A DNA stretch of 64,000 bases from Vescimonas coprocola (GTDB taxonomy: Bacteria; Bacillota; Clostridia; Oscillospirales; Oscillospiraceae): the NCBI RefSeq assembly GCF_018408575.1, contig NZ_AP023418.1, forward strand, positions 1,268,415 to 1,332,414. Reading direction: 5' to 3'. This document shows positions 35,179-62,472 of this stretch, piece after piece. The translations under genes were made by a program, and so were the position numbers. Each line of letters begins with the position of its first letter. Position 1 is the stretch's first letter. The notes under the pieces were generated by a model. It saw only the letters and a list, made by a program, of their open reading frames with translations. It was not told the origin of the DNA and ran no database searches.

Positions 35179-36694
35179 TTATTCGGGCAAGTCCACCTTG
35201 CCAACAAAAGAATAATAAATCTCAATGTCCTGTCTGCGGGTCTTGTTCTCGTCATAGCTGCACTCATGCACAACGATTTTCTCTACAAACTCCCGCAGCA
35301 GAGTAGGGGTAAGTTCTTCAAAGCTGGTATGCCGCCGGACAACATTCATAAACTTTTCTGCGTTCACGGTGGCTTCCTGTGCTTTGGAAAGCTCCGCTTG
35401 AATAGCAGCGGCTCTTTCTTTCAGCTCCCGTTGCTCTGCTTCATAGTCTGCCGACAGCTCTGTGAAACGCTCGTCTGATATGCGCCCGGTCACGCTGTCC
35501 TCATACAGCCGCTTGAAGATAGCGGATAACTCGGCTATGCGTTTCTCGGAGGCTTCCAGTTCCTTTTTCTTGGCGGCGTTCCTGCGTTTGCCCCCGTCCT
35601 CGTTCTGCTCAATCAAGAGTTTCATAAACCGGGCTTCATGCTTTGCCGCATAGCTGGTCACTTTCCGCAGATTGGAGAGTACACCAGCGGTCAAGAGGTC
35701 GGTGCGGATAAAGCGCGCCGTACAGTCATGGGTGCGCTTCTTGTAGTTGCCGCAGATATAACAGTCCTGCTTGCGCTTGTCCGTCTGGTATCGCTGCTGA
35801 TACATCACGCTGCCGCAGTCCGCACAGAACAGTATGCCGGAGAACAAACCCACTTCATCATAGCGGTTTGGGCGTTTGCGCTGTTTGCGAAGCTCCTGCA
35901 CCCGTTCCCATGTTTGGGTGTCTATGATAGGCTCGTGGTGGTTCTCGAAAATCACTTGCTTTTCCGGGGGATTTTCTACACTGTGCTTGACTTTGTAAGA
36001 AAGTTTTTCTGTCTTGAAATTTACCAGACAGCCTGTGTATTCCCGGTTTTCAAGGATATGCACTACGGTATTGGTCGCCCACTTGCACTCATAGCCGGGG
36101 TGGTAGCGGCGGGTGCTGCCCGTCCTGCGGTATTCAAGCGTTCCCGGCGTGGGGATTTGCTGCTCTGTGAGCATACGGGCTATCTTGGTCGGACCATTCC
36201 CGGCAAGACAGAGGTTGTATATCTGCTTGACTACGGGTGCAGCTTCCTCGTCAATAATGAAATTTTCATCCTCGTCCATGAGGTAGCCATACACAGGCTT
36301 GCTTGTGATGGGCTTGCCATTCATGCCTTTTGAGCGTTTTACTGCTTTGATTTTCTTGCTCGTATCTCTCACCAGCCATTCGTTAAAGATATTCCGCAGC
36401 GGGGCAAAGTCATTGTCGCCCTGTGCGCTGTCCACTCCGTCATTGATAGCGATGAAGCGGACACCTTTCTGTGGGAAAATCATTTCCGTGTACATTCCCA
36501 CTTGCAGGTAGTTTCGCCCTAACCTCGACATATCCTTTACGATAACTGTCCCGACTTTTCCGGCTTCAATGTCCGCAAGCATGGCTTGAAAACCGGGTCT
36601 TTGAAAGTTCGCACCAGAATAACCGTCGTCCGTGTACCAGCGCAGATTGGAAAAGCCGTTCTGCTTTGCATAGGTTTCAAGGATACGCTTCTGA
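35179..36694 (-). pseudogene. Large serine recombinase (TndX/TnpX type), C-terminal 93 percent, cut off by an insertion
   Basis: The frame runs from the insertion breakpoint at 36694 (QKRILETYAKQNGF...) to TAA at 35179, about 505 residues. It holds the rest of the resolvase domain (WYTDDGYSGANFQRPGF, GTVIVKDMSRLGRNYLQVGMYTE), the recombinase domain, a zinc ribbon (CADCG ... CYICG) and the DUF4368 tail. The first 32 codons, with the catalytic serine, lie at 62472-62377 on the same strand. No other damage is visible, so the break is probably recent. It belongs to the outer element; the gap 35090-35178 holds an inverted repeat CCTATCCG/CGGATAGG. Confidence 0.9.
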
Positions 36695-36755
36695 GACGAG
36701 ATTTGTCAAGGGTATTCTCTTCTCGAAAATACAATTTCAAAATCATTATATGAAT

Positions 36756-36788
36756 GAGTCAGTCCTCTTCCGGGTCTGACTCTTTTTT
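36756..36788 (+). terminator. Terminator near the left end of the inner element
   Basis: GAGTCAG / CTGACTC stem followed by TTTTTT. No gene precedes it on the plus strand within the element, so its gene has been lost or was never here. The rest of 36695-36892 shows nothing else recognisable. Confidence 0.65.
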
Positions 36789-36892
36789 CTTAAAGACTTA
36801 TACAGTCTTAGTTTCGATTGCAGGACCCTTTTCCCCACTTAATACTTTAAGCGGTATTATGGCCTTGCAAGAAAGAAATGAGGTGAACAATT

Positions 36893-37084
36893 ATGAGCAT
36901 TACAAATGCGGCGAGAAGATTTGAACAGAGATTTGACGCAAAAGCGGAGCGCTTTATTTGGCATCATCCGCTACTTGGCTTCATCTCCATCTTTGTTGGA
37001 ATGCCCTTACTGGTTTTGGCGTGTGTCTGTATCAGTACGATCGTTATCGCCTTTCCTATGGCATGGCTTTTGGGTTGGTTGTAA
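36893..37084 (+). CDS. Small membrane protein upstream of kdpF
   Basis: 63 residues. A charged N-terminal part (RRFEQRFDAKAERFIWHHPLLGF) precedes two hydrophobic stretches ending IAFPMAWLLGWL. The ATG is preceded by GAGGTGA. Similar tiny proteins precede kdp operons in clostridia, as far as I recall. Lower G+C than the genes to its right indicates a different origin. Function unknown. Confidence 0.55.
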   Translation: MSITNAARRFEQRFDAKAERFIWHHPLLGFISIFVGMPLLVLACVCISTIVIAFPMAWLLGWL

Positions 37085-37182
37085 TCTTTATTTCATCTTT
37101 AAACGCACAAAAGATGACTAATGCCATTTTTAGAGGAAAGGTTTTATGATATTGGGGACAGCAAAAAAGGAGGATGAATCTT

Positions 37183-37275
37183 ATGCAAATGCTAATTGCA
37201 CTCATAGGTGTATGTGCGGCAGCAATGCTGCTGTGGTATGTCTATATTTTAATGAAGGGAGATGATCAGGCATGA
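37183..37275 (+). CDS. kdpF: KdpF-like peptide of the K+-transporting ATPase
   Basis: 30 residues: MQMLIALIGVCAAAML through YILMKGDDQA. It is a single-helix peptide of the length and character of KdpF, which stabilises the Kdp complex. AAGGAGG precedes it. Its stop overlaps the next start (ATGA), as kdpF commonly does with kdpA, and the following codons MSTMIQY fit the KdpA N terminus. The rest of the operon is missing. Confidence 0.6.
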   Translation: MQMLIALIGVCAAAMLLWYVYILMKGDDQA

Positions 37276-37843: not shown

Positions 37844-38840
37844 ATGAATTTTGATATTGTATCCTTCATCCCCCCGCGCGGTCATGCAGGGTATCCCCCT
37901 GCTGTACGGCAGCACCGGCGAGATCCTCACCGAGAAGTCCGGCAATCTGAACCTGGGTATCCCCGGCATCATGTATGTGGGCGGTATCTGCGGCGTCATC
38001 GGCGCGTTCTTCTATGAGCAGGCCGTGCCCGCCGACCAGATGAGCGGCTTTCTGGCCATTCTGATCCCCATGCTGTGCTCCCTGCTGGGCTCTCTGCTGA
38101 TGGGCCTGCTGTACTGCTTCCTGACGGTGACCCTGCGGGCCAACCAGAACGTTACCGGTCTGACCATGACCACCTTCGGCGTGGGCATCGGCAACTTCTT
38201 CGGCGGCTCCCTGATCAAGCTCACCGGCAGTGAGGTCCCCTCCATTGCCCTGTCCGCCACCAGCGGCTATTTTGCCAAGTCCCTGCCCTTTGCCAAGAGT
38301 CTGGGCTGGTTCGGCCAGATCTTCCTGTCCTATGGCTTCCTGGCGTATCTGGCCATTATCCTGGCCCTGCTGTCCTCCTATTTCCTGAAGCACACCCGCC
38401 CCGGCCTGCACCTGCGCTCCGTGGGTGAAAGCGCCTCCACCGCCGACGCCGCCGGCATCAACGTCACCCGGTATAAGTACCTGGCCACCTGCGTGGGCAG
38501 CATGATCGCCGGTCTCGGCGGCCTGTACTACGTGATGGACTACGCCAGCGGCGTGTGGTCCAACAACGCCTTCGGCGACCGCGGCTGGCTGGCCATCGCC
38601 CTGGTGATCTTCACCATCTGGCGTCCCAATGTCAGTGTCCTGGCCTCCATCCTGTTCGGCGGCCTGTACATCCTGTATCTGTACATCCCCACCGGCAGCC
38701 AGATGGCCGTGAAGGAGCTGTACAAGATGCTGCCGTATGTGGTCACCGTGGTGGTGCTGGTGATCTCCAGCCTGCGCAACAACATGGAAAAGCAGCCGCC
38801 TGCAAGTCTGGGCCTCAGCTACTTCCGAGAGGAGCGGTAA
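37844..38840 (+). pseudogene. Nucleoside/BMP-type ABC permease 2, with a one-base frameshift
   Basis: The ATG at 37844 encodes MNFDIVSFI, then a run of six C (37870-37875) shifts the frame; with five C it would continue RAVMQGIPLLYGSTGEILTEKSGNLNLGIPGIM, the conserved YufQ/NupQ start. The remaining 320 residues to 38840 are intact, with LRSVGESASTADAAGINVTRYKY as the coupling loop. It would pair with permease 1 to import nucleosides or related compounds. The frameshift may be a sequencing error. The gap 38841-39128 has no gene, only a terminator. Confidence 0.8.
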
Positions 38841-39008
38841 AACTTTCGCCATCCGGCGTTTGTCCGCTGCTTTTCCCCCACAGCGCAGCTGCGTCCCAAG
38901 CGTTTTGCGCAGCAAAACCTTGCCGCAGGGCGGATTCACTCCGCCCGTGTCCGCAGCGCTTTGATGGAGCCGCTCCCCAGCGGAGAATGTCCCATTAAGG
39001 ATTTTTGA

Positions 39009-39051
39009 CAAGCCAAGGCCGGCAGGTCATTGACCTGCCGGCCTTGGCTTG
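39009..39051. terminator. Perfect 21-bp bidirectional terminator
   Basis: CAAGCCAAGGCCGGCAGGTC and its complement with almost no spacer, followed by TTTCG, between the convergent permease and protease genes. Confidence 0.8.
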
Positions 39052-39128
39052 TTTCGTTTCCCGGCTCTCCGGCGCACATGTGCCGGAGAGCCTTTATAAC
39101 AGCCTGTGCAGAAGCACTTCCGGTCTGT

Positions 39129-42100
39129 TTATTCGCCCATGAGCTTCCGCCGCTTCAGCAGGAGCATCACAGCGCCTGCGGCAGCCGCCATCATCGCGCC
39201 GCTCAGCAGGAAGATGGGGAACCCGTCGCCGGTCTGGACACTGTTTTCGATCCAGCGGGCCGTCAGGGTCGTGTCACCCTTGACGCTGTACACGCTGGAG
39301 GCGTCGTAGCGGTTGCCGTCCTTGTCGTACCAGCCGCCGAAGGTATAGCCCTCCCGGGTGGGTACGGGCAGGGTGCCCACAGCCTGACCGTATACCACCG
39401 CCAGAGCAGAGGGCTCCACCTTGCCGCCATTGGCGTTCAGGGTAATGGTGAAGGTGCTGTCCTCCTGACCCCAGCGGGCGGTGAGGGTCACACCATCGGC
39501 TGTGCTGTAGACGGTGGAAGCATCATAGCGGCTGCCCACCTCGTCGAACCAGCCCAGGAACACATAGCCCTCCCGGGTAGGTGTGGGCAGGGCGCCCACG
39601 GCCTGGCCGAAGGTCACCTGGACCAGGGCCACGTCGGTGACGCCGCCGTTGGCGTCCAGGGTGATCTCGTAGATATTGGCGGTCCAGCGGGCAGTGAGGG
39701 TGGCGTCTCCGGCGATGGCATATATGGTGTCCTCGGTGTACTGCGCACCGTTTTCGTCATACCAGCCGTCGAAGGTATAGCCCTCACGGACGGGCACAGG
39801 CAGCTGGCCCACAGCTATGCCGTACTGGACGCTGACGGAGTCGGGCTTCACCATGCCGCCGTTGGCGTCCAGAGTCACGGTATAGCCCTGACCAGGCAAT
39901 ACCTCCACCACGCAGTAGGCGGTGACGCTGGTGTTGATATCGGTGGACACCTTGATGTAAGCGTAGCCGGGCTTGTGGGCGGTGACAACGCCGTTTTCAT
40001 CCACGGTGGCTACCTCGGGGTTGAAGGAGGTCCAGGTCAGCGCGGCGTCCTCCGCCCGGGTGGGGGTAGGAGTCAGCGTCGCGTTCAGCGCCAGAGTCTC
40101 CAGGGGATGCAGGGTGGCCCGGGTATCATCCAGGCGCAGGGTATTGGCCTGCACCGGCAGGCAGACCACGGCGAAGTTCACATGATACTGCCCGTCCTTG
40201 GTGGTGGCGGTCAGATAGCTGACGCCGGGCTCCGAGGGGGTGTAATAGGCAACGTTCTTGCGGGTGCCGTTAACGTTGACGTCCTCGGCGGTCTCCAGCT
40301 TGCCGCCGCCCTCCGTCACCGTCCAGTTGAAGGGACCGTAGGTGCTGTCGGGACGGTCATAGGTGACGCCGGAGAGGGCACCCGCCGGATTACCGGCCTT
40401 CTCCGTGCCGTCTGCCCGGATCACCACCGTGGTGGAGGAGCCGTAGGGGGCGGACACGACGATATCGCCGGTGGTACGGTCATAGGTATAGCCATTGTAC
40501 ATGGCGTTTTCCGTCAGCTCATACTCATAGCCGTAATCATAGCGGTAAACCACATGGATGGACTCCGGCAGGGCATAGCCCTCGGTGTTCACCAATCTGC
40601 CGCGCCAGGGCTCGCTGCCGGAGAGGACAAAGTCCGGGCCGTCCAGCACCAGGCCGGTGGCGGCGGTGGTGGGATTGTCGCTGCCGCCGGAAACATACCC
40701 CTGGGCCGTGTACAGCTTCACATCGGAGAAGGAGTGGGTCTGGCGGTACCGGGCGATGAGGCTGGCGGTCTCACCGGCGGTGACGTAATAGGTCTGCTCG
40801 TTGTAGTAGGCGTCGGACTGCAGGTCCTCCTGGTCGGAGGTCTGATAGACGTCCTCCCAGTCAAAGGTCATGGTCCGGGTAACACCGTTGATGGTGACGT
40901 CCAGATGGCCGGTTCCGGAGGGGATCTTGTCCGCGGAGGCCTGATAGTTCAGGTCGATAAGGCCCTCCAGCGCGTCGCTGCTGTTCTGGGAGACGCTGAC
41001 CAGGCCCGCCCAGTCCTCGTCGTCCTCATATACCAGCCACTGATTCTGATAGATCTCCACATCGGCGGGCTGCAGGTCCACCACCCGGACGGTGATGGCG
41101 CCGTTGGGCTTCAGGCCGGAGAAGTGGTCCATGGACAGCTTGAAGTCCTTCACCTCCGTGGAGGATGCCTCCACCGCTATGACGCACAGGGCGGAGTAGG
41201 TGCCGTTGGACACGGTGATGATGGCCTGGCCGGGAGCCACAGCCACCACATGACCGAACTCATCCACCGTGGCCACCTCGGGGTTGCTGGAGGTGCGGGT
41301 GATGGGCGCCGTGGAGCCGGTGTTGTTGTTCACGCTGAGGTCAAAGCTCTGGCCGGGGTGCAGGCGGGCGGATGTCTGGGACAGGGTCAGGCCCTGGGAG
41401 GCGTCCACCTTGATGGCATAGGTGCGGTCATTGGCCGCATAGTCGCCGCAGGAGAGATACACGTTGCCGGTCCAGTTGTAGCTGCCGCGATACTCCGTCA
41501 CATCTGCGGTGAAGGTGAAGGTGTGGGTATCGGCGTCATAAATGCTCTGGGAATACAGGGGATTCAGCAGATCGATGTTGTACTCGGTGATTTCCCGGCC
41601 GGTGGAGTCGGTATAGGTCCGGCTCACCTGGGCGTGGACCGCCACGGAGGCCAGGGAGCCGTCCTCGTCATAGACGGTGCCCTGCATATAGGTGCGGCCA
41701 TCCTTCTGATAGAAGGTCACGGCGTTGTTCTCCAGCTTGGGGGCCTGGGTGTCCACCAGCACGTCGAAGGAGAGCACGTCGCCGGTCTTGTCCATTTTGT
41801 GGCCGTTGAAGGTGGGCTCCTTGCCGTCCACGAAGGACTCGAAGTCCGTCACCGGGCGGCCCAGCTCCTCATTGTCCACGGTGTCGCCGTAGTCACCCTC
41901 GCCATAGGCGGTAATGGTGTAAACGCACTGGGTGCCGTTGGGCAGGACGTCGCCGTTCAGGTCCGTTCCATCCCAGGCATCCGTGAAGTAGTAAAGGGAC
42001 ATGGGCAGGACCACGCCGTAGCCGGCCTGATAGACGCTGCGGGGCACATAGGTGTTGAAGGTGCGGAAATAGAGCTCGTTGGTGTTCTTGTTCCGGACCT

Positions 42101-45100
42101 CGGTGACAAAGAGCTTGGCATCCCGCAGCTGATAGAGCTCAAGGTCGTCAATGGCGTCGAAATAGCCGCTGCCGTCCGGGGAGATGGCAAAGTTCTCCTG
42201 GTGGAAAACTGTCTGCTTGCTCTCGGCGGCAATGTCGGTATCAAAGATGTTCTGGCCCAGGTTCAGGAAGTTCACCACTTCCCCGGCGCTGCGGATGGTA
42301 CTGCCCACCACGTTGACGCCCAGGGTACAGTCGTTGTTCATCACGTTTTCGCCGTCCTGGGGCTCGTCGAACCAGTTGGCGCGGTCCAGGATGGGGGCAG
42401 AGGTCCAGTCGCCCAGGAAGGCCAGCAGGGGCATGCCGATCTGAGGCGCGGAGCCGTCGGCGGCGGTGAGGATCACAAAGCCCTCCACATAGCTGCCGTT
42501 GGGGAACAGGTCGCGGATGGCGGCGATGTCGGAAGCGGTGAGGGAAACGGTCCGGCTGACCTGTGTGCCGCCGGCGGGCACGCTGACGCTGCCCAGATCC
42601 ACCTCACGGATCAGCACATCGCTGGCAAGGACCATGGTCTTGCCGTCCTGCTCTGCGGTATCCGGCCGCAGAAGCACGGCCTTCATGCTGTAGCTCAGGG
42701 CGTCGCTGCCCAGGTTCTCCACCCGGAAGTCCAGATCATAGCTGCCGCTCCAGCCGGGATCGTCGCCCAGCTCCAGCTTGCCCACCAGCTTGCCGTCCAC
42801 ATCGATGTAGGCAGGGGGTGGAAATGGCCGCGGCTGCGTTCACAAGGCCGGCGCCCTGGCGGCGGGGAGAGACGTATACGCCGTTCTCCTGCTGGGGCAC
42901 GGCGGTGCTCACCAGCAGATGGTTGGTCAGGTCGGCGCTGGCGGCGGCGTCCTGCTGGGGATGCTGGGACTTGACATACTGCTCCACCAGCGCGGCCAGG
43001 CCCGCCATATGGGGCGTCGCCATGGAGGTGCCGCTCATCAGACTGTAGGACCCGGTATAGTCATCGTACTTCCCGGCGCCCTCCACATAGCTGCTGTCCA
43101 TCACGGTGGACCAGATGTTGCCGCCGGGGGCGGTGATCTCGGGCTTCAGCTCCAGTCCGGAGCCGCTGCCCCAGGAGGTGAAGGAGGACATCTGGCCGCC
43201 CTCCTCCCAGTCGGACAGCTGGTCCTGCTGGTGAACGGTGATGCGGACCTCCTGCCCGGCGTTCAGCGCATCGATCATGGCCGCGCCGTCCACGCCGGAA
43301 ATAAAGGCGGAGGTCAGCGAGGTGTTGTCCGTGTTCATGTTGATAAGCGTGGTGGCGGCGGGGTCGCTGTCATAAACCAGCACAGCCAGCACGCCGTAGC
43401 TCTCGCCCATGTAGTTGGTGCCGGAGAAGCTGCTGGCATTGTTGATCTTGTCGGCGAAGGAGAGGGTGCTGCCGTCTGCGCTGCCGCGCTTGACCAGGGC
43501 AATACCCGTCTTGCCGCCGTTGTAGCCGTTGCTGAATCCGGCGTTGTAGTAGTCCATGTAGGTGCCGTAGCCCGCGTCATACACAACGAAGCTCTGGCTC
43601 TCGGGGAACTTCCCCTTCATGGCCACTTCGTTGGGGTCGGAGAAGGGCACGGTATGGCTCTGGCCCTGGGCGTCGGTCCAGCTCAGCACACTCTGCATGT
43701 TGATGGTGCTGTTGATGGAGGCCACCGCCAGGTTGGAGGGGTAGACGGCGGGAGAGGACATCATGGAGATATCCGGGTCCTCCGCCAGGTTCAGGCCGCC
43801 CCGCTCATTGCCCTGGGCGGGGGAGTTTTCGCTGTTGCCGGCGGCGGTCATCAGGATGACGCCGGCCTGCTCCAGCCGGGCATAAACGCCGTGGATGGCG
43901 GTGTCGTCATAGGCAAAGCCGTTGTCGGAGCCCAGAGACAGGTTCACGGCGTCGGCGCCCAGGGTCATGGCGTCCTCCAGGGCGTTGAGAATGGCGCTTT
44001 CCGTGGCGCCGGAGTTGCCGCCGTCGGCAAAGACCTTCATCATCATCAGCTGGGCATCGGGGGCTACGCCGGAAAAGAGGACCTCGCCCTCCTGGCTCTG
44101 GACAAAGCCCGCCACGGTGCCGGAGACGTGGGTGCCGTGGTTGCTGCCGCTGTTGCGGACGTTGACGTCGCCGCTGATGATCTCGCCGGTATAGGGGTCG
44201 GCGTCTCCGGCGTAGTCAAAGGCGAAGGGGACCTTGCGGGTCTTGTACATGGCCTCGTTGGAGGCGGGGCTCAGCCTATTGGCATTGAGCTGGCGGCCGT
44301 TCAGGAAGGCCAGCAGGGACTCCTTGGTATAGCGCAGGTCGCTGTTGCTGAGCTGGGAGTAGAAGGAGTCGTCCCGGAAGGCCTCGTGGACCCGGCGCAG
44401 ACCGGTGACGTTGGCGCCCTCCTCATCGCTCCACCAGCTGGAATACTCCATGTCCAGGCCGGAATCCACCACGGCCACCAGCATTCCCTTGCCGGTGTAG
44501 CCCTTGTTCCAGACCTCCTGCAGGTGGACCATGTCATAGCTGTAGCCTGCCACACCGGCATTGGTGGCCGGAGAGGTGGGCTGACTGTAAACATGCTGCA
44601 CATGGGCGGACTTCACACCCTTCAGATTGCGGATGGTATCCAGCATGCCATAGGGGGCGCGGACGGCCATGCCGTTAAAGAGCACCGTCCACTGCTCCAT
44701 CAGCTCAGGGGCACAGGCAGTGCAGGTGCCCTCCGCCTGGAGAGCGGCGGGCTGGGCCGCCTGGATCTCGGCAAAGACCTTTTTCTGATCCCGGCGAATG
44801 GCGGCATCCTGTTTCTCCGCGCGGCCGCCGGCAAGATAGGCGGCGATCTCCGCACCGGCAGAGCTGGTGGAAGCCGTTTTCTTCGCGGCAAAGCCCTCCA
44901 GCACGGGAGCGCGCTCCAGCTCCACGAGGATGGTCACCATATCATCGGGCTGATGCCCGGTGGGCTGGGTGGTTTCCGCCGCAGAGCCGTTCTCCGCCAT
45001 GGCGTCCAGCCGGGGGGTGCCGCTGACCTCCTCCGCCTTCACCACGGTCCCGTCGGGGGCGGCGGCTTCGGCGGCCAGAGCCGTGGGCACCAGGCCCAGC

Positions 45101-45141
45101 AGCATGACCAGCGTCAGTAGCAGTGCGATCACTCGTTTCAT
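39129..45141 (-). pseudogene. Large cell-wall S8 (subtilisin/C5a-peptidase-like) protease with one frameshift
   Basis: About 2,000 residues in two frames. Signal peptide at 1-23. The catalytic triad is visible: D226 (VDSG), H335 (NHGTHVSG) and S706 (SGTSMATPH), with a protease-associated domain between His and Ser. At residue 776 the frame shifts in a five-G run (42814-42818); four would restore STPAYIDVDGKL. The second part has a DUF1034-like domain, Big_2 repeats and three Flg_new/InlB B-type repeats (YTVTLDANGG ... GYTFDGWYDENG). The tail NSVQTGD plus hydrophobic segment and KRRK is a sortase-like signal. Without the frameshift it would be an intact lactocepin-like protease. Confidence 0.85.
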
Positions 45142-45317
45142 GTTATACATTCCTCCCTTGTGTTGAACTCCCATGTGCTGCATTCTTTATAGGACAATGA
45201 ATGTTCTATGATCATGGGATGACCGTCGTTACTATAGCATTTTACCGCGGCGGTGTCAAGCTATGCCGGGTGGAACTTCCGGGTTTTCTCCATTGAAACA
45301 GGAGAATAACATGCTGC

Positions 45318-45346
45318 TTGACAAATCACGTCCCACAAGATATAAT
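45318..45346 (+). promoter_or_regulatory. Consensus promoter of the tetR operon
   Basis: TTGACA (45318-45323), a 17-bp spacer and TATAAT (45341-45346): a perfect sigma-A promoter. Confidence 0.9.
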
Positions 45347-45380
45347 AACACTGCGTTATATATAACGCAGTGTTATTATA
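45341..45380. promoter_or_regulatory. Perfect 40-bp palindrome, likely TetR operator
   Basis: TATAATAACACTGCGTTATA is followed directly by its exact reverse complement. The palindrome starts at the -10 box and ends 14 bp before the regulator start, so a bound dimer would block RNA polymerase. This is the layout of tight autorepression. Confidence 0.8.
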
Positions 45381-45394
45381 CAAGGATGGTGCTT

Positions 45395-46000
45395 ATGCCG
45401 GCAGTCAGAAAAGTTTCAAAGGAACAGATCATCGACGCTGCGGTGGAGGTATTGCGTGACGACGGTTTTTCTGCCATCAACGCCCGCAGCGTCGCCAAAA
45501 AACTGGGCTGCTCCACGCAGCCGATCTACTTTTCATTCAAGAACATGGACGAACTGAAGGCCGCGCTGACGCAGCGTGCGATCGAACTGCACACACAGCG
45601 CGTGCGGGATTCTCTGTGCGCCCACGAGGGGAGCGACAGCCGCTACAGCAGCTACGGCATGGGCTTCGTCAAATTCGCTGCCGAGGAAAAGCAGCTGTTC
45701 CGCTGGCTCTATCTGGAGGGCGAACAGCCAGGGGCATATCAAAGCGATGTTCTGATGCAGGAGGTCATCGGCGTGATCGTCGATGAATTCGGATATGCGG
45801 AGGACGTCGCACGCCGCTTTCATCAGGATATGATCTACTTTACCTACGGACTGGCGATTCTCGCCAATACGGATCATCTGCACCTGACGGAGACAGAGCT
45901 GCGTGAGGCGTTCCGCCGGGAGTTCCGCGCGCTGATTGCCATTTATGGAAAGCCCGCAAAGCTGCCTGAATTTGCTGTGAAAGCCGGTGTTGCTTTATGA
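45395..46000 (+). CDS. TetR-family transcriptional regulator
   Basis: 201 residues. The N-terminal helix-turn-helix is clear: KEQIIDAAVEVLRDDGFSAINARSVAKKLGCSTQPIYFSFKNMDEL. The C-terminal ligand domain is unassigned. The start at 45395 follows AAGGATGG; ATG at 45386 in the same frame is an alternative. A perfect promoter and a 40-bp palindrome lie directly upstream, so it surely represses itself and probably the DUF998-clpP-acetyltransferase genes downstream, which have no obvious promoter of their own. Confidence 0.9.
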   Translation: MPAVRKVSKEQIIDAAVEVLRDDGFSAINARSVAKKLGCSTQPIYFSFKNMDELKAALTQRAIELHTQRVRDSLCAHEGSDSRYSSYGMGFVKFAAEEKQLFRWLYLEGEQPGAYQSDVLMQEVIGVIVDEFGYAEDVARRFHQDMIYFTYGLAILANTDHLHLTETELREAFRREFRALIAIYGKPAKLPEFAVKAGVAL

Positions 46001-46230
46001 ATCTGAAGGTATCCTTTTCGTGGATCGGGCTTGTGATCTTTGCGCTGCCCATGCGGCACATCTCACCGTGTCGATTCAATCCTTTTGCTGACATTTGCAA
46101 AGCGCAAGCAAAACATCGAGATTTTGATCAGGTGACACTGGATGTCTGGACATTCAATGAGTCGGCGCAGAAATTCTATGCGGCAGCAGGCTTTCAGCCC
46201 TATCGGTGCTTTTGGGAAAGCCAAACTTGA
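45997..46230 (+). pseudogene. C-terminal remnant of a GNAT acetyltransferase
   Basis: The only recognisable part is HRDFDQVTLDVWTFNESAQKFYAAAGFQPYR, the end of a GNAT domain. The acetyl-CoA loop is missing, and the first 25 codons look unrelated. The start overlaps the tetR stop. Confidence 0.6.
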
Positions 46231-46250
46231 TAAGCACAGGGAGCGATAAA

Positions 46251-46886
46251 ATGAAGCGATCTTTGACTCAAAAATTAGGGCTGCTGGGCGTTGTCAGCTT
46301 TCTTTCGTACACGGCGGCGGTCGTGTTTGCGCCGCTGACCTATCCCGGCTATAACTGGATGGCACAGGCTGTCAGCGACCTGAGTGCCGCCAATGCGCCA
46401 TCGCTGGCACTCTGGAATCAGCTGAGCGCCCTTTACAATGCGTGCGAGGTCGTTTGCGCGACCGTCGTCTGTATCGGCATCCAAGGACAGAAAACCAAGC
46501 TGCTCCGTTCGGGCATTTATCTGTTCGCCATCATGGAGTGGATCTCGGCGGTCGGGTATCGGATGTTCCCGCTCAGTAGCAGCGGCTATGCCGGGGCCTT
46601 TCAGGATGTGATGCACATGGTCACAACCGCTTTGGTGGTGCTGCTGTCCATCGTATCACTGACCATGATCATCGTCGCAGGAGCCAAGAGCAAAAACTGT
46701 CGTTCTTATGGTGTCTGCGCCGCTGTCGCATTGGCCATGATGCTTGTGGGCGCAATGGGTATGAAAATCGTCCCTGCCGAGTATTTCGGCGTGGTCGAGC
46801 GTTTCAGCGTGTTTGCTGCAACAGGCTTCAATGCGGCGCTTGGCATTCACCTGTTTTGTATGAAACCAAAAGAAATCAAGGAGTAA
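46251..46886 (+). CDS. DUF998 membrane protein
   Basis: 211 residues with six transmembrane helices. It contains YPGYNWMAQAVSDLSAANAPS, the DUF998 signature in the first loop, and YRMFPLSSSGYAGAFQDVMHMVTTALVV. The start at 46251 follows AGGGAGCG. It lies between tetR and clpP, with 6 bp to clpP, so all three are probably one operon. DUF998 proteins have no established function. Confidence 0.8.
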   Translation: MKRSLTQKLGLLGVVSFLSYTAAVVFAPLTYPGYNWMAQAVSDLSAANAPSLALWNQLSALYNACEVVCATVVCIGIQGQKTKLLRSGIYLFAIMEWISAVGYRMFPLSSSGYAGAFQDVMHMVTTALVVLLSIVSLTMIIVAGAKSKNCRSYGVCAAVALAMMLVGAMGMKIVPAEYFGVVERFSVFAATGFNAALGIHLFCMKPKEIKE

Positions 46887-46892
46887 ACATAT

Positions 46893-47483
46893 ATGAGCAT
46901 CATTCCCTATGTGATCGAACAAACCAGTCGCGGCGAACGTAGCTACGACATTTTTTCCCGGCTCCTCTCCGACCGAATTGTTTTTCTCGGTGAGGAAGTA
47001 ACGGACGCATCCGCCAGTTCCATCGTCGAGCAGATGCTGTTTCTGGAAGCACAAGACCCAGACAAGGATATTCAGTTCTACATCAACAGCCCCGGAGGCT
47101 CGGTCACGGCCGGGTTTGCGATTTACGACACCATGCAGTATCTCAAGTGCGACGTGTCCACCATCTGCATCGGTCTGGCCGCGAGCTTCGGCGCTTTCCT
47201 GTTAGCAGGCGGCGCAAAGGGCAAGCGGATCGCACTGCCGAATGCGGAAAACATGATCCACCAGCCGCTGATCGCTGGGAACGGCGTACACGGCCCGGTC
47301 ACGGATATTCAGATCGTGACCGAACAAATGCAGAAAACCAAACAGCGGCTGACCCGCATTCTTTCCGAGAATACGGGAAAAACCTTTGCACAGGTTGCCG
47401 CCGATACGGAGCGCGACAACTACATGTCGGCGCAGGAAGCCCTTGCTTACGGGCTGATCGACAAAATTATTGACAAGAGATAA
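46893..47483 (+). CDS. clpP: ClpP-type serine protease (accessory copy)
   Basis: 196 residues, full length. Catalytic residues are S98 (GLAASFG), H123 (MIHQPL) and the Asp of DTERDN, and the head motif [11 protein letters not shown] is intact. AAGGAG precedes the ATG. The usual neighbours clpX and tig are absent; instead it follows tetR and a DUF998 gene and precedes acetyltransferases within a mobile element. It is therefore likely an extra copy beside a housekeeping clpP elsewhere. It could form mixed 14-mers, or confer tolerance to ClpP-directed stress; both are speculation. Confidence 0.92.
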
Positions 47484-47494
47484 GGAGAAACGCC

Positions 47495-48122: not shown

Positions 48123-48136
48123 ACAGGAGGAAAAAA

Positions 48137-48505
48137 ATGGCATCCGGTAAAGAGTATCTTCATTTCATTCTGGAACAGCTATCCGATCTGGACGATATTT
48201 CTTACCGTCCTATGATGGGAGAATTTATCCTCTATTACCGAGGTAAAATCGTCGGTGGAATCTATGATGATCGACTGCTTGTAAAGAAAACAAGATCCGC
48301 TCTGGAACTTATGCCTGCGGCAATCTGTGAGCTCCCGTATGAGGGAGCGAAAGAAATGCTGCTGGTGGATGAAGTTGATAGCAAAGTGTTTCTTACAGAG
48401 CTCTTTGAGGCAATGTTCGATGAATTGCCATCGCCAAAACGAAAGAACAACGGCATTGGAGGAATAACCGATGAACTATATTCGGATCACAAAAGAAAAT
48501 ATTGA
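48137..48505 (+). CDS. TfoX N-terminal-domain protein
   Basis: About 122 residues beginning MASGKEYLHFILEQLSDLDDISYRPMMGEF and containing GGIYDDRLLVK, ELPYEGAKEMLLVDEVD and FLTELFEAMFDELP, the pattern of small stand-alone TfoX_N proteins of clostridia. AGGAGG precedes this ATG, showing that it is normally a separate gene. As written it is in frame with the upstream GNAT, but that apparent fusion depends on one extra G. Despite the name, a role in competence is not shown for such proteins. Its last 35 bases overlap the next gene. Confidence 0.8.
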   Translation: MASGKEYLHFILEQLSDLDDISYRPMMGEFILYYRGKIVGGIYDDRLLVKKTRSALELMPAAICELPYEGAKEMLLVDEVDSKVFLTELFEAMFDELPSPKRKNNGIGGITDELYSDHKRKY

Positions 48506-49928: not shown

Positions 49929-50614
<686 letters not shown>

Positions 50615-50942: not shown

Positions 50943-52645
50943 TTATCTCTCCCAATGCTCTTTTTTCTTGGACTGATTTTGCGGAACTGTTCTCTGTTCT
51001 TTCTGCCGCCGCATAATGAGCTGTCGCACTTGCCGTTCTTCTGTGTCCTCTCCAAGCAGACGCGATGCTTCCTGCTTGGCGCTGAGCAGCACAATAAGAG
51101 ATGGCTTCTCCTGCATGGTGTCCTCTAATTGCTTTTTGACTGCCTTTTCCAGCGCAGGGCGAATGACCTGCCGTGCTTTGTACAGCTCTACCGGGTCAAA
51201 ATCCGCAGCCTGCGCTTTCAGTTCAGCGTATTCATCCAAAGCCTTATCCAACTCGGCAGAGTATTTCTGCTCCTGCGCCTCCAGCTTTTTTAGACCGGCC
51301 TCCATGGTGGCAATATCCTTGCGGAACGCCTCAGCGCCTGCATCCTCCGCATACTCAAATCTTTGCAAAAGGAGTGCCTTTTCGGAACGGAGTTCTTCCA
51401 AATCTTCTGTCAGCTCGGTAATGCAGACAGCCAGCGTTTTGTGGCGTTTCACATGGTATATTGGCAATTCCTTTTTCTCAGCAACCAGCGCTTTGCGCTC
51501 CTTGCTCTTTTTCTTGATTTGCTGCACCAGACCGGTGTAACGCTCCAGCTCCGGCTTCCATACGGCGAGAGATTTTTGAATATGCGATTTGCCGCTGCGA
51601 ATATGCGAGAGCTGATAACAGAAGATCAGCACACGGCTGCGTAGCTTTTCCAGCCCTTCCGCAATGGCGGGGACAGTACGAGCGACCAGTGCGGCTAGCT
51701 TCTTGATTTCGGCTTTCAGCTCCCGCAGCAGCGCATTGTCCGCCCTGATCTGCCGGTTGATCTCGCAGCGGTCAGCAGATGATCCCTTTCCGCTCCAGCG
51801 CCCGTGCGGTCACTCCCTCATGGATGGTAGGCTGCTCATCCAGACCTCTGGCTGCGTTGCTGCGGTGGTCGATTCGCTCCGCCCGTCCGGCGCGCTCCAG
51901 ATAGAGATTGGTCACATCCGCCCATGCAGCCCGCCATGCCGCAAGCTGCTCCTCACTGTTCCAGCGCTCGGAGATAGGGATTCTGTCTGCCGTAGCGGGT
52001 GCTTTTGGGGTGCTTATCTGCACGGGCAAGCCCCTGCGCATCGGCCTCGGAAGGAACCATATACACCTTCTTTTTGCCGACCTTGTAGGGATATTGTTTC
52101 TCCCATCGCTCGTTCTGTGCCGCCTTAAACTCAGCGGCAGTAAAACCTCGTTCCTCACCGTTTCTCATGCAGAGATATTCCTTCTCGGTCTTGTACTGCC
52201 AGTGTCCCTGCTCATCCAACGGGCGCACCGTCAAGAGAATGTGGGCATGAGGGTTGCGACCGTCGGTGTCGTGGATGGCTGCGTCGGCGCACATTCCATC
52301 GGCCACAAACTGCTCCCGGATAAATTCTTGCAGCAACTCAATCTGCTCCTCACGGTTCAGCTCTATGGGCAAGGCAACGACAAATTCCCGTGCCAAACGG
52401 CTGTCTTTGGCTGTCTCCACTTCCTCCACGGCGTTCCAGAGCTTTTCACGATCTTGCCATTCCTGCGGGGCATATTCCGGCAGAAACACTTCCTGCCAGA
52501 CAAGTCCCTGTTTTTTTGTGTAGTCATGCTGTATCCCGTCGTAATCGTTATACAAGCGGGAGCAGCTCAGATAAGCGGAGGCGGCCACAGCGGAGCGTCC
52601 CGCACCCCGGCTGACCACCTTCGCTTCCAGATGGTAAATTGCCAT
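50943..52645 (-). pseudogene. mobL: MobA/MobL relaxase with two frameshifts
   Basis: From ATG 52645: MAIYHLEAKVVSRGAGRSAVAASAYLS, the MobA/MobL start with its tyrosine, then NPHAHILLTVRPL (metal-binding HxH) and KHPKSTRYGRQNP. A GGG at 51977-51979 (two expected) and an extra A at 51774 (plus-strand reading) shift the frame twice. The coiled-coil C-terminal half continues to 50943. With single-base corrections it would be a 567-residue relaxase. The relaxase nicks oriT, which lies about 290 bp upstream (52928-52941). Confidence 0.85.
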
Positions 52646-52848
52646 TGTTCGTTCACCTCGTTTTCTTTTTTCTGTTTCTCTTTTGTAAAAGAGAAAATGG
52701 ACGGGCTGAACGCCTGTCCATTTCTGCGGCAAAGCTGCCGGTGGCAGGTTTGCGCAGGCGGTTGGAAAATAGCGTCGGTTGAAGCGACGGTATTTGCCCA
52801 ATCGCGCAGACGATGACAGCAGCATCCGCAAATGCTGTGGCATTGTCT

Positions 52849-52870
52849 GTCGCTTTCCGCAGAAAGCGAC
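52849..52870. repeat. Perfect 9-bp hairpin in the mob intergenic region
   Basis: GTCGCTTTC / GAAAGCGAC with a 4-nt loop, between mobL and the oriT core. Confidence 0.7.
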
Positions 52871-52904
52871 ATCCCCCTCGGAGAGCGCACGATGCCGCAG
52901 GCAT

Positions 52905-52941
52905 ACCACCGCCCCTTCGGGGTGGTGAGTAAGTGCGCCCT
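52905..52941 (+). other. oriT: Putative oriT with RSF1010-like nic
   Basis: A hairpin, CACCGCCCC / GGGGTGGTG (52907-52915 and 52919-52927), is followed by AGTAAGTGCGCCCT. TAAGTGCG/CCCT is the nic sequence of RSF1010/R1162 (MobQ family), which likewise lies just after a hairpin. The inferred nick is between 52937 and 52938 on the plus strand. The region 52646-52993 has no gene and sits directly upstream of a MobA/MobL gene, the expected place for an oriT. Confidence 0.75.
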
Positions 52942-53948: not shown

Positions 53949-55250
53949 TCAATACGGCAGCGGATTGACTACCTCAATGCCCATAAAGCCACGCACCCGC
54001 TTGCCGCCGACGTGGACATTGTTGGTGGCCTCCACGTTGTAAAGCCGCTCATTTTGTGCAAGCTCAGAGCTGACCCGGTTGGCAGACATGGGCTTCTGCG
54101 CATTATCGTCGCACCATCTTGTGTAGGCTTCATAGATCGCCTTGGAGCTGGCCTCGCTGTCTGCCCGAAAGCGGATATAGCCCTCGGATTGCAGAAACTC
54201 AATCACATTGTTGCTGCTGCGCTTGACCGTCTCCATATTTTCTTTGGCCTTTGAGCTGACTGTGAACTGATAGTTGTCCCCGATCAGCCGGTGCAGCCCC
54301 TCCAGACACCAGAGGAAGATGCCCTCCTTTTCCCGCAGCAGCTTGTCCACCAGAAACGGATCGTCTGCTCTGCCTGCGGGCCGGTCTTTGGTGGTCAGCA
54401 CGATCTGGCGGCGAAAGAAACCGTCGGACTTGTCGTGTAAGGCGGTCAGCGCACCGTTGCCGAAGCAAAGAAAACGCACATAGAGCTGGCTTTGGTAGCT
54501 CTGAACGCCCTTGCGCTCCATATCCATCTTGCACTCGGAGGTCACGATGGACTTGATATAGTTGGTCTTGGGCAGAGCGCTCATATCCATATCGTCATCT
54601 ACCATCAGGAGCTTGTTTTCCAAATCCGCACGGCTGAACCGGTTGCTCTCCACCTTCTGGATGCTGGTGGTATTCATGCTGTCGCCCAGCAGCGAGCGCA
54701 TGACAAGACCGATGCGGCTTTTACCCTCGCCGCCCTTGCCGATGAGCATGAGCATCTTCTGTCCCTTGGTGGTTGGCAGCAGACAGTAGCCTAAAAACTC
54801 CTGCAAGGTGGGAATGTCCTCCGGTTGCAGCAGCTCGGACAGGAATTGCAGCCACTTTTTCGGAGTGGGCGCGTCAGGGTTGTAGGCAACCGTCAGTCGG
54901 TTGTTGCAGTAGCTCTTGACGGCGGTAAAGCTGCCGTCTATGAAATACGTTCCGTTGGAAACATGGATACGGTCGGTCTCAATGGGCAACGGCGGTGAAT
55001 ACGCTTGCAGCTTGATGCTGGCAAGCAGATTTGTCACAACTTTGGACAGTCCGGAGGTCAGAACTCCGGAGATTTCCTCCAGAATGAGATTACCGATCTG
55101 CCCTTCGTCCTCGATGAGACCGTCCACGGTGAACAGCCGCCCGCGCACACATTTCATGGGGTGCTTGTCCAAAAACTGCTGGCAGAACAGCACTTCATTG
55201 ATATGCCTGCCATCGTACCAGTCAGGCCACGCCTGCGGTGTCATTTCCAT
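53949..55250 (-). CDS. D5/DUF5906-type superfamily-3 helicase (primase partner)
   Basis: 433 residues. The helicase core has Walker A IGKGGEGKSR and Walker B LLMVDDDM, then the sensor region RFLCFGNGALTAL. The N-terminal 150 residues resemble D5_N, and the C terminus is a winged-helix-like domain (SSKAIYEAYTRWCDDNAQKPMSANRVSSEL). Its start lies inside the end of the CHC2 gene (29-bp overlap), so the two are coupled and together supply priming and unwinding for replication of the excised element. Confidence 0.85.
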   Translation of the reverse strand: MEMTPQAWPDWYDGRHINEVLFCQQFLDKHPMKCVRGRLFTVDGLIEDEGQIGNLILEEISGVLTSGLSKVVTNLLASIKLQAYSPPLPIETDRIHVSNGTYFIDGSFTAVKSYCNNRLTVAYNPDAPTPKKWLQFLSELLQPEDIPTLQEFLGYCLLPTTKGQKMLMLIGKGGEGKSRIGLVMRSLLGDSMNTTSIQKVESNRFSRADLENKLLMVDDDMDMSALPKTNYIKSIVTSECKMDMERKGVQSYQSQLYVRFLCFGNGALTALHDKSDGFFRRQIVLTTKDRPAGRADDPFLVDKLLREKEGIFLWCLEGLHRLIGDNYQFTVSSKAKENMETVKRSSNNVIEFLQSEGYIRFRADSEASSKAIYEAYTRWCDDNAQKPMSANRVSSELAQNERLYNVEATNNVHVGGKRVRGFMGIEVVNPLPY

Positions 55251-55920: not shown

Positions 55921-58175
<2,255 letters not shown>

Positions 58176-59415: not shown

Positions 59416-60352
59416 ATGAAGAATCTCTTTGAGCAGTCCCGTTCCCATTGGGTACGGTATGACCGCTATGAACTGAAAACAGCCGCAGACGGCAAGCGGT
59501 ATATCACGCCGGGGAAGAATGCCAAGCCCGACATATATAATCCCTTGAAGGAAGCGCCGGGAATCGTGCTGGATGCGCTGAATGTGGGAATGCTGATGAT
59601 GAACCGCAGCCCGGAGGACGAGGTGCAGAAGGCCATTCTGGAATTTGTAACCCATTACGGTCTGCTGGGCCTGATGACAGCGCTGCCCACCACGCCGTCC
59701 TTTCATGGATTATGAGGCGGTCTATCTGCCGAAAAACCACTTTCATCAAGGCAGAATCCATGGAAACCGAGGACTATCTGGCGCTATTCTATCCCTTTGA
59801 CCAGCTGGATCTGGTCAAGAAGGGCGTGAGTCCAGATGGAGCGTGTCCGGCGACAACATGATGGTGGCGCTGACCATGACCTTTCATGCGAGTGAACCCA
59901 TGGCGAAAGAAACCATGAGCTTCCAGCGAGAGTATGCTGAAGCCTATGACTGGGTGGCGCAGCAGTTCAAGGACTGGGCCTTTACGCTGACCACATCTAT
60001 TTCTGTACTACAACGACTACGACCTGCATCGATGAGGATACACGGAAATCTGTATCGCAAAGGCCATGGCTGCCTTTCGGCGGCATTGCGCCCAGCTATC
60101 ATATTGAGCTGTTGGACAAAGCCGACCATCTATTGGGATTTTCCACTCCCTGCTGCTGGGCATCCAGATGATGTTCAGCTTCCTGCTGGTGGATGGAGAG
60201 AAGCCCCTGCGGCTGTGCAAGCACTGCCAGAAGGTGTTTCTGAGCAGTCGCTCCAATTCCGCATTTTTGCAGTCCCCCGCTGCAAGAATCAGTATAATGT
60301 CTATAAGAGCAGAGAAAAAAATAAGGGGCAGGACGGTGAGAATGATGATTGA
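59416..60352 (+). pseudogene. DUF6076-like protein with many small indels
   Basis: The intact beginning is MKNLFEQSRSHWVRYDRYELKTAADGKRYITPG. From 59700 on the frame changes about ten times; pieces such as MDYEAVYLPKNHF, SGDNMMVALTMTFHASEPMAKETMSFQREYAEAYDWVAQQFKDWAF, GIQMMFSFLLVDGEKPLRLCKHCQKVF and NQYNVYKSREKNKG lie in order. The last two belong to a zinc-ribbon end. Most changes are one extra T, A or C in short runs, but a lost G (after 59826) and others also occur. It is either the most decayed or the worst-sequenced gene here. Confidence 0.7.
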
Positions 60353-61818
60353 CCGCTGGATCGCAGAAGCGACCGAATGTGATTTCAAGGTCGCGCTGGA
60401 GGTAAAGAAGCCGAAAAGCTGGCTCAAAAGCGTCAGTGCGTTTGCAAACGGAATTGGCGGTACGCTGTTTTTTGGTATTGATAATGACAGAAATGCTGTC
60501 GGCTTAGACGATGCACAGACCGATGCAGAGGCAATCAGCCGGTTGATCAAAGAGCGTATCACGCCTTATCCGAGTTTTGTCCTCGCACCGGAGCGGGAGG
60601 ACGGCAAGGACATTCTTGTGCTGTCTGTGTCAGCAGGGCGCTCCACACCGTATTACTACAAAGCGGACGGCATTATGGAGGCGTATATCCGCATCGGCAA
60701 TGAAAGCGTGATCGCCCCGTCCTATGCGCTGAACCAACTGATTCTCAAGGGAATGCACCGCACTTATGACGAACTGGTTTCCGAGTATGATTTCAAGGAT
60801 TACGCTTTTTTCCAAGCTGCGCGAACGGTATAAGGCTTGGACGGGCAACAGCATGGAAGAAAAGCTGTTCGATTCCTTCGATATGCGGGACGAACACGGC
60901 AAGCTGACCAATGCGGGCGCTTTGCTTGCAGATGATTCTCCCATCCGGCATTCCCGCCTGTTCTGCACACGCTGGAACGGCCTTGATAAAAGCGGCGGCA
61001 TGGTGGATGCACTTGACAGCGCAGAATTCTCCGGTAGCCTGATCATCCTGCTCAATGAGGGTGTCAGCTTTGTCAAGCGGAATATGAAAACGCGCTGGAA
61101 GAAAACTGCCGATTCTCGTGTTGAGATGCCCGACTACTGCGAACGAAGCGTTTTTGAGGCGCTTGTCAATGCGCTGATCCACCGCGACTATCTGATATTG
61201 GGCAGCGAGGTACACATTGATATTTACGATGACCGCCTTACCATTTATTCTCCCGGTGGTATGCCCGACGGTACGCGAATACAGGAACGAGACCTGTCCA
61301 GCATTTCCTCCACACGACGCAATCCCGTCCTTGCAGATATTTTCGGCAGATTGGGCTATATGGAGCGGCAGGGCAGTGGTTTTAAGAAGATCACGGAATC
61401 CTATCATGCCGCCCACAACTACCGTGCTGAGTTGGAGCCTAAATTCTACTCGGATGTTACCTCATTCCAAGTGACGCTGTACAACCTGAATTATGGGCAA
61501 TCCATTGATAAAACGAGTATTTCGGATGAAAACCAGTTGTTTGATGAGCAGAAAGCAGTTGTTTCTGAGAAAAACCAGCTGTTTGAAACATTCCTTTTAG
61601 GGCTGAAAGCGAAAGCAAGCACCAAGGAAACAATGCTAAAGCTGTATCATAAATTTGGTTTTGACGCTGCATTTGCACGAGCGGATATTATGAATCTCGC
61701 GGGTGTAACCTCCTCACCGGCAGGTGCATTGATAGATAAGCTCAAAAGCGCAGGACTAATAGAACCTGTTGCCGGTCAAGGCAAGGGCAAATATAGGTTC
61801 GTATTGCCCAAAGAATAA
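60342..61818 (+). pseudogene. AlbA_2 (Schlafen-type) / HATPase-like regulator, one frameshift
   Basis: ATG at 60342 (or 60345): ECDFKVALEVKKPKSWLKSVSAFANGIGGTLFFGIDND, the AlbA_2 nucleic-acid-binding domain. A six-T run (60806-60811; five expected) shifts the frame. The rest includes RSVFEALVNALIHRDY and IYDDRLTIYSPGGMPDG (GHKL-like fold), RNPVLADIFGRLGYMERQGSGFKKI and a C-terminal winged helix. Corrected length is about 490 residues. Such proteins are common accessory regulators in mobile elements; the target is unknown. Confidence 0.8.
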
Positions 61819-61820
61819 GA

Positions 61821-61860
61821 GAACGCCCGTTATCGGCCATGCAGCCAATAACGGGCGTTC
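61821..61860. terminator. Bidirectional terminator
   Basis: A 17-bp stem with one mismatch (GAACGCCCGTTAT ... ATAACGGGCGTTC) between the convergent AlbA_2 and tnpV genes. Confidence 0.8.
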
Positions 61861-61861
61861 A

Positions 61862-62233
61862 TCAGTTATATACAAGTTCAGTCAGAACAATTTCCTCAGC
61901 ACGGCTGCGGATGCTGTTCATGCGGCGCACCCATTCCATTTGGTCGGCGGCTTTGAGCGCTTCGGTCACATCTTCCTGCCTTGCCATATCGGAAACGATG
62001 ATTGCCATACGCTCGTTGCAGGCTTGGTCGATCTCGGCAAGGTGCCGATGCAGCGTTCCGCTTGTGAGCAGGCTTGCATAGAGAACCGGACGATGTTCTT
62101 TCAGATAGTTGCGGCGCATACGCCCGTACTTGCCGATCTGGTATTCTGGTTCGTCCGGCAGCGCAAGGTTCGGGATAAGATAATCACCCTCCTGACGGTA
62201 AGTGCCGCCCATTTCCTCAAATAGAGATTTCAT
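61862..62233 (-). CDS. tnpV: TnpV-family transposon protein
   Basis: 123 residues: KSLFEEMGGTYRQEGDYLIPNLALPDEPEYQIGKYGRMRRNYLKEHRPVLY, then LTSGTLHRHLAEIDQACNERM. This is the TnpV protein of Tn4451-type elements, of unknown function. The ATG at 62233 follows AAAGGAGC. It is the gene nearest the right end of the inner element; the remaining 140 bp carry a GGTGG/CCACC hairpin and end at GA 62376-62377. Confidence 0.85.
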   Translation of the reverse strand: MKSLFEEMGGTYRQEGDYLIPNLALPDEPEYQIGKYGRMRRNYLKEHRPVLYASLLTSGTLHRHLAEIDQACNERMAIIVSDMARQEDVTEALKAADQMEWVRRMNSIRSRAEEIVLTELVYN

Positions 62234-62375
62234 AAAGTTCAGCTCCTTTTTGTGTTGATTTGCAGCGGTTATAAGTTTTTTGTCTCCTTTCCTACAACTG
62301 CTGTTCCATTCACCACAAATGAGCCGCAGTCATATGTATTAGGTGGGAGAAACCACCCTCTACATAGTAACTCTT

Positions 62376-62472
62376 GATTGGAAATGGAATTGCTTTCGCC
62401 TTGCAGCTCGTCCTCATGGGATAGTCTTGGGTAAAGGGCGGTAATTGGTTGTTGGTTGGTCTGTCTTAACAT
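62376..62472 (-). pseudogene. Outer serine recombinase, N-terminal 32 codons
   Basis: ATG 62472 begins MLRQTNQQPITALYPRLSHEDELQGESNSISN, the start of a large serine recombinase with the catalytic Ser (S18). At 62377 similarity stops. The continuation QKRILETYAKQ lies at 36694 on the same strand. The two parts join in frame across the shared GA. Confidence 0.88.

What the first reader, a model, noticed from the sequence alone, without database searches (positions are those of the whole stretch)
36693..62377. 25.7-kb element nested inside the recombinase gene of another element, joined exactly at GA
The first 32 codons of a TndX-type serine recombinase (62472-62377) and the remainder (36694-35179) are on the same strand in the right order. 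Each breakpoint has GA; collapsing the two into one gives AAT CAG AAG CGT, coding SNQKR as in intact relatives. TnpX (Tn4451) and TndX (Tn5397) are known to use GA. The outer element would be unable to move until the inner one leaves, so the inner element controls the mobility of its host element.
Basis: partly seen in the sequence, partly recalled or inferred. Interest (0 to 1): 0.8.

Follow-up and report, generated by a model that had tools for sequence, protein, structure and literature searches.

The report
Element that lands in others' recombinase genes
A mobile DNA element in a gut bacterium sits inside the "mover" gene of another mobile element, and it belongs to a family that often lands at this one spot in other elements' mover genes, which should leave those elements stuck.

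Summary
The nesting is real. A 25,683-bp element (36693-62376) splits a TndX/TnpX-type serine recombinase gene of a second element. A same-genus genome (G001) has that gene uninterrupted, with flanks 99.9-100% identical. The shared dinucleotide is CA (TG on +), not GA: the base before it is T in 11 and C in 12 of 23 junctions.

It is not one lucky hit. The same genome holds two related elements whose left ends lie at the same codon (SNSIxN|CA) of two other recombinase genes. In overlapping genome surveys, 22 of 33 CA-type left ends and 11 of 20 CA-type right ends lie exactly there; the rest do not. Six elements with core TG instead of CA sit at the same codon in the opposite orientation. Fifteen of the elements' recombinases form one clade (100/99); target genes are diverse and include kin of that clade. 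The ends carry promoter halves that would meet only in the circle.

Best reading: mobilizable elements whose main attachment site is the catalytic-domain code of other elements' recombinases. That this disables the host element is inferred; excision was not tested. New variant of a known kind.

The parts
36693..62376 (-). Inner mobilizable element, 25,683 bp counting one core copy; left end at 62376, right end at 36693
62377..62472 (-). Outer recombinase gene, first 32 codons, ending at SNSISN
35179..36691 (-). Outer recombinase gene, remainder (Recombinase, zinc ribbon, DUF4368)
62375..62376 (-). Core dinucleotide CA at the left junction
36692..36693 (-). Core dinucleotide CA at the right junction
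62364..62369 (-). -10-like TACTAT, 5 bases inside the left core
   Evidence: 26 of 26 left ends listed there have core-N5-TANTNT
36704..36709 (-). -35-like TTGACA, 10 bases before the right core
61865..62233 (-). tnpV
   Evidence: Pfam TnpV, 165.1 bits against cut-off 27
55921..57969 (-). Inner element's large serine recombinase, frame-broken in this copy; a near-identical copy at C1 856119-858170 is open
51953..52909 (-). MobQ / MobA-MobL relaxase
53949..55250 (-). P4-family primase
49929..50516 (-). Small resolvase-type serine recombinase
60168..61818 (+). Schlafen AlbA_2 / HATPase_c_4 regulator in two frames
37851..49211 (.). Cargo: ABC permease, subtilase-type surface protein in two frames, TetR regulator, DUF998, ClpP, GNAT/TfoX, YoaP
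   Evidence: the whole stretch is also in the second copy
62584..62874 (-). Outer element: tnpW
62769..63707 (-). Outer element: DnaC/IstB-like ATPase
35087..35090 (.). Near boundary of the outer element: homology with both G001 copies begins here, flanks differ

Best explanation
The inner DNA is an integrative mobilizable element of the Tn4451/Tn6104 type. Its large serine recombinase belongs to a clade that mainly uses the conserved SNSIxN|Q codons of other elements' TndX/TnpX-type recombinase genes as its attachment site, exchanging at CA. Shown: the insertion, the uninterrupted relative, recurrent use of this one codon in different recombinase genes, one recombinase clade in the elements, and orientation that follows the core dinucleotide. 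Inferred: the element's own recombinase joins the circle to this site, reversibly in principle; the host element lacks a working recombinase while the insert stays; a promoter (TTGACA-N17-TANTNT) exists only in the circle and reads into tnpV.
For: Uninterrupted relative; 78 of 80 named relatives continuous at the codon. Three related elements in one genome in three different recombinase genes. Left-end survey: 22 of 33 CA-type ends at the codon, 1 more cut by a contig end but consistent. Right-end survey: 11 of 20 CA-type ends, against 1 backward-control match for 41 real ones. All 22 CA-type left-end insertions forward; six distinct TG-type insertions, all reversed. Fifteen element recombinases one clade, 100/99. 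Of 23 stretches, 18 have a clade recombinase linked to the left end, 17 of them in a target codon. tnpV, MobQ relaxase, primase. Both junctions read in eight elements.
Against: Ten of 33 CA-type left ends, 9 of 20 CA-type right ends, 10 of 14 TG-type left ends and 14 of 18 TG-type right ends are not in a recognised recombinase gene, so the ends are wider than this target or the specificity is incomplete. G324 has a clade recombinase (partial) and both ends elsewhere. G027 has a clade recombinase but no recognisable left end. The 18-stretch count is biased, since most were fetched because of their flank. G334, G148 and G324's second end lie in targets but showed no clade recombinase in 10-19 kb. 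The recombinase in the window copy is frame-broken. No excision data.
Confidence: 0.85

Rival explanations
1. Loose targeting: the recombinase is multi-targeting, as DUF4368 recombinases often are, and recombinase genes are hit mainly because gut Clostridia carry many of them.
For: The clade has DUF4368; many multi-targeting recombinases do (PMC10083194, passages). 24 recombinase matches in this genome. Ends outside recombinase genes exist.
Against: Insertions in recombinase genes all fall at one codon, not at other places in the gene, which abundance alone does not predict.
Confidence: 0.1
2. Regulatory switch: the insertion has been kept because reversible excision times the mobility of the outer element, like skin elements in sigK.
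For: Seamless insertion in a coding gene; open copies of the clade recombinase exist.
Against: Each target is hit in few genomes; 0 of the 80 named outer-gene relatives show this insertion, so it is not a fixed partnership. The window's inner recombinase is frame-broken.
Confidence: 0.03
3. Misassembly joined two unrelated stretches.
For: A second, 95.6% identical copy of the element exists in the genome, and single-base-run length differences hint at sequencing error.
Against: The two copies have different flanks on both sides, and the same junction form recurs in independent genomes.
Confidence: 0.02

Closest known systems
Tn6104/Tn6105/Tn6106 in Tn6103 of Clostridioides difficile (PMC3158075, passages) and Tn4451/Tn4453
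   Same: Mobilizable element with a TnpX-type serine recombinase, TnpV, mobA/mobL-type mobilization gene and a 2-bp core, nested in a larger element. A circle-formed promoter is known for Tn4451 (title seen in reference lists only).
   Different: The Tn6103 insertions lie in ORFs 1743 and 1776, described there as in the conjugation module. Tn4451 relatives have low site specificity (PMC5704250) and use GA (recalled); here the core is CA or TG and the site is a recombinase codon.
IMEs with conserved sites in ICEs: traG, oriT of Tn916 (PMC5704250, passages)
   Same: An element that uses a conserved gene of other mobile elements as attachment site.
   Different: Those sites are transfer functions; here it is the host element's own recombinase gene, including genes close to the element's own clade.
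Tn1806-like ICEs nested in ICESa2603-family ICEs (PMC12942858, passages)
   Same: Serine-recombinase element nested site-specifically in a gene of another ICE.
   Different: Triple serine integrases and snf2, hsdM or methyltransferase targets, not recombinase genes.
Multi-targeting DUF4368 large serine recombinases (PMC10083194, passages)
   Same: Same domain make-up (Resolvase, Recombinase, zinc ribbon, DUF4368).
   Different: In the window's group, insertions recur at one codon of one gene family.

Membership tests
Integrative mobilizable element, Tn4451/Tn6104 type | Large TnpX/TndX-type serine recombinase | tested here: met
   Domains; open copy of 684 codons. Frame-broken in the window copy.
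Integrative mobilizable element, Tn4451/Tn6104 type | TnpV and a MobA/MobL-type relaxase | tested here: met
   TnpV 165.1 bits (cut-off 27); MobQ 209.8 bits (cut-off 200).
Integrative mobilizable element, Tn4451/Tn6104 type | 2-bp shared core at both ends | tested here: met
   CA at both ends.
Integrative mobilizable element, Tn4451/Tn6104 type | No mating-pore genes of its own | tested here: inconclusive
   None among the ORFs scanned, but not every ORF was scanned.
Integrative mobilizable element, Tn4451/Tn6104 type | Excision as a circle and mobilization in trans | not testable with these tools
   No reads or mating data.
Tn4451/Tn5397 proper | GA core dinucleotide (recalled) | tested here: not met
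   Core is CA/TG; 12 of 23 left junctions exclude TC/GA.
IMEs of traG or oriT sites | Site lies in a transfer gene or oriT | tested here: not met
   Site is a serine recombinase gene.
Multi-targeting DUF4368 recombinases | Many unrelated target genes | tested here: inconclusive
   Most CA-type left ends share one codon of one gene family, but 10 of 33 lie elsewhere or in unrecognised sequence.

The most novel reading that the evidence does not exclude
A clade of mobile elements specialised on the recombinase genes of other mobile elements, kin of its own clade included: an element-on-element parasite that disarms its host's means of moving when it lands and lets go only on its own terms, so that which element may move is decided by the inner one. 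The natural CA and TG subfamilies, which land in opposite orientations at one codon, are a ready experiment on how core letters set polarity.
Probability: 0.3. Interest if true: 0.8.

Novelty: new variant of a known kind. Interest (0 to 1): 0.64.

Why it matters
Recombinase genes of this type are common in gut Clostridia (24 matches in this one genome) and move resistance genes among them. A family that lands in the catalytic-domain code of these genes would act as a natural brake on other elements and would explain some of the split recombinase genes in genomes. It also offers many natural attachment-site variants and two core types with which to test what sets site choice and orientation in large serine recombinases.

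Tried and rejected
GA core: rejected. Misassembly or chance: judged very unlikely. A frame slip of mine: one search translated the relatives one base out of frame and printed 0 of 80 as continuous; one search repeated it in frame (75 by pattern; L048, L069, L088 added by reading; L067, L081 not continuous). One search stopped on a script error and was redone. G689 was dropped from the elements with both flanks from one gene: its flanks match two different recombinases. The third copy's right end was not found in 45 kb. The second copy's target is a remnant: homology ends about 55 residues past the junction. G290's right end had only about 100 bases of flank and is counted as not in a recombinase, though its left end is. 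L250 was called a target by eye, its flank being too short for the search. Three left-end loci without a target (G504, G912, G080) had no clade recombinase in 15-20 kb, and eight right-end loci without a target had none either, within stretches of 3-20 kb. After a recheck I fetched the 24 left-end places that had no locus or had been read only in part, and added them; this changed 21 of 30 to 22 of 33 (CA) and 3 of 6 to 4 of 14 (TG). L318 and L328 also read as CA-type insertions at the codon by eye, but their alignments start too far in and they are not in the count. Viral, plasmid and phage collections gave no further junction: the end pattern had 0 matches; the three closest recombinase relatives there (L305, L306, L307) showed no readable left end. 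Literature: eight searches (listings) and passages of seven papers showed no element whose site is the recombinase gene of other elements; the phrase search listed 2 papers, neither on this subject by title. Only an open-licence library was searched.
Full report
WHAT WAS CHECKED. The finding says that a 25.7-kb element splits the recombinase gene of another element. On the - strand, 62472-62377 encodes the first 32 residues of a large serine recombinase up to SNSISN, and from 36691 to 35179 the rest follows, with Recombinase, zinc-ribbon and DUF4368 domains and a cut Resolvase domain. In genome G001 of the same genus the two flanks adjoin in one contig: window 35087-36694 (99.88%) and 62375-67722 (100%) meet with 3 shared bases. 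Of 80 named relatives of the remainder (the best 80 of 489 found), 78 run through this codon without a break and 2 have an unrelated upstream (75 by pattern, three more by reading the rows).

THE CORE IS CA, NOT GA. Related junctions fix the shared letters. In the CA-type left ends the target always ends in CA, and the base before it is T in 11 and C in 12 of the 23 tallied, while the matching right ends read ...TCTCA, or TTTCA in one. Only CA (TG on the + strand) is common to both ends.

THE SAME CODON AGAIN AND AGAIN. The genome holds a second full copy of the element (95.6% over 25.8 kb, C1 about 405,970-431,730) and a third relative (98.3% over 8.9 kb, left end near C1 852,170). Their left ends lie in two other recombinase genes, after ...DDSNSIQN and ...GDSNSIQN. 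The 136-bp left end was then searched in 400 genomes of the family, 394 of the order and 391 of the class, sets that overlap. All 79 distinct places listed there were examined: 55 and 24. In 26 the alignment starts too far from the end to judge, and 6 have another core. Of 33 CA-type ends, 22 follow a recombinase N-terminus that ends exactly at SNSIxN or a close variant, 1 is cut by a contig end but consistent, and 10 have no recognised recombinase. Of 14 TG-type ends, 4 abut the rest of a recombinase gene, reversed, at the same codon (one of them, G310:C11, and by reading the flank), and 10 do not.

A SECOND SURVEY FROM THE OTHER END. The right-end pattern CCTTGACAAATNNNNTCTYR was sought in 350 genomes of the family: 41 matches in 28 genomes, against 1 for the backward control. 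Forty flanks were tested and the window's own. Of 20 CA-type ends, 11 run straight into a recombinase gene at the codon (one, L250, read by eye because its flank is short) and 9 do not. Of 18 TG-type, 4 meet the N-terminal code reversed and 14 do not; two TA and one CG do not. So the right-end motif is wider than the recombinase-targeting group. Nine TG-type ends read TGTTCTCTTG; 8 of these 9 lie outside recombinase genes, so they look like a subfamily with other sites.

ORIENTATION FOLLOWS THE CORE. All 22 CA-type left ends and 11 CA-type right ends in recombinase genes are in one orientation. The TG-type insertions there (six distinct elements: two in G310, one each in G380, G176, G100 and G334) are all in the other. 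The target's coding strand shows CA in all. This is what is expected if the half-sites are near symmetric and the central dinucleotide sets polarity (known for large serine integrases; recalled).

WHO DOES IT. In 18 of 23 stretches examined, a recombinase of one clade is linked to the left end. For 17 of these the left end lies in a target codon; the exception, G324, has a partial recombinase. This count is biased, since most stretches were fetched because of their flank. In the other 5 none was seen, mostly because little sequence was left, but G334 had 10 kb. In one search, two right ends that lie in targets (G148, G324's second) also showed none within about 19 kb. In a tree of 28 proteins (15 element recombinases, 6 target remainders, 7 other recombinases) the 15 form one clade (100/99), apart from the targets. 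A look that started from the recombinase DNA in 32 genomes of the genus gave 4 strong places: three in this genome, all in target codons, and one in G027 without a recognisable left end. Some targets resemble the clade itself (L156, L166, L264), so the family seems to enter its own kin too.

BOTH ENDS. Both junctions were read for the window element (25.7 kb), its second copy (25.7), G244 (33.9), G344 (12.5), G633 (18.5) and G572 (19.8), and for G310's two (about 17.6 and 15.4). For the window, G001 shows that both flanks are one gene. For G344 and G633, continuous relatives of the remainder carry an N-terminus at the same codon, in G344's case with nearly the same letters. For the others this was not tested.

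HOW IT LIKELY WORKS. The element has TnpV, a MobQ relaxase, a P4-type primase, a small resolvase and the large recombinase, plus cargo. In the circle the right end would bring TTGACA, and the left end TANTNT, to a 17-base spacing. The left half is present in all 26 left ends listed; the right half is in the right ends, while the pattern requires it. Integration parts the two halves. A circle-made promoter is known for Tn4451, from the title of Lyras and Rood 2000, seen only in reference lists. Inference: after transfer the circle expresses tnpV, the recombinase joins the circle to the SNSIxN|CA DNA of a suitable recombinase gene, and the host element loses its recombinase. In this window the inner recombinase is frame-broken at runs of one base, while a copy that differs only by such lengths is open at C1 856,119-858,170. 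Sequencing error and decay cannot be told apart here.

LIMITS. No reads, excision or transfer data were available. Disabling of the outer element is inferred. The outer element carries a TetM/TetW/TetO/TetS-family gene beyond the window, so its broken gene is only described.

KNOWN OR NEW. Nested mobilizable elements, and elements with conserved sites in ICE genes, are known (PMC3158075, PMC5704250, PMC12942858; passages), and loose targeting is known for DUF4368 recombinases (PMC10083194; passages). I found no report of a family whose site is the recombinase gene of other elements in eight searches of an open-licence library; papers outside it were not searched. I rate it a new variant of a known kind.

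Noticed in passing
L009:7451-9370 (beyond the window; window scale 69036-70955): The outer element carries a TetM/TetW/TetO/TetS-family tetracycline-resistance gene (1282.3 bits, cut-off 1100).
   Followed up: no
window 35179-36582; L011-L025, L079: The outer recombinase remainder is 100% identical in protein in 16 of the 80 listed loci, from Streptococcus pseudopneumoniae, Veillonella, Anaerotruncus and others, which points to recent wide spread of the outer element.
   Followed up: no
window 55921-57969, 60168-61818, 39129-45183: Three long genes of the inner element are split into overlapping frames, as if by single-base-run errors or decay.
   Followed up: partly
G000:C1:486044-492635: Four serine recombinase genes lie in a row in this genome.
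   Followed up: no
L305:4021-11260: In an IMG/VR contig three serine recombinase genes stand directly before an 80% relative of the inner recombinase that lacks its first 57 residues.
   Followed up: no
window 6788-7483 and 12290-13117: Internal direct repeats of about 174 bp and 328 bp.
   Followed up: no
right ends L265, L266, L267, L273, L275, L278, L281, L284: A subfamily with right end TGTTCTCTTG lies in sites other than recombinase genes (L283, same end, lies in one); its targets were not worked out.
   Followed up: no
G689:C56 (L224, L215): Left and right flanks of this element match two different recombinase genes, as if two insertions had recombined or lie nested.
   Followed up: no
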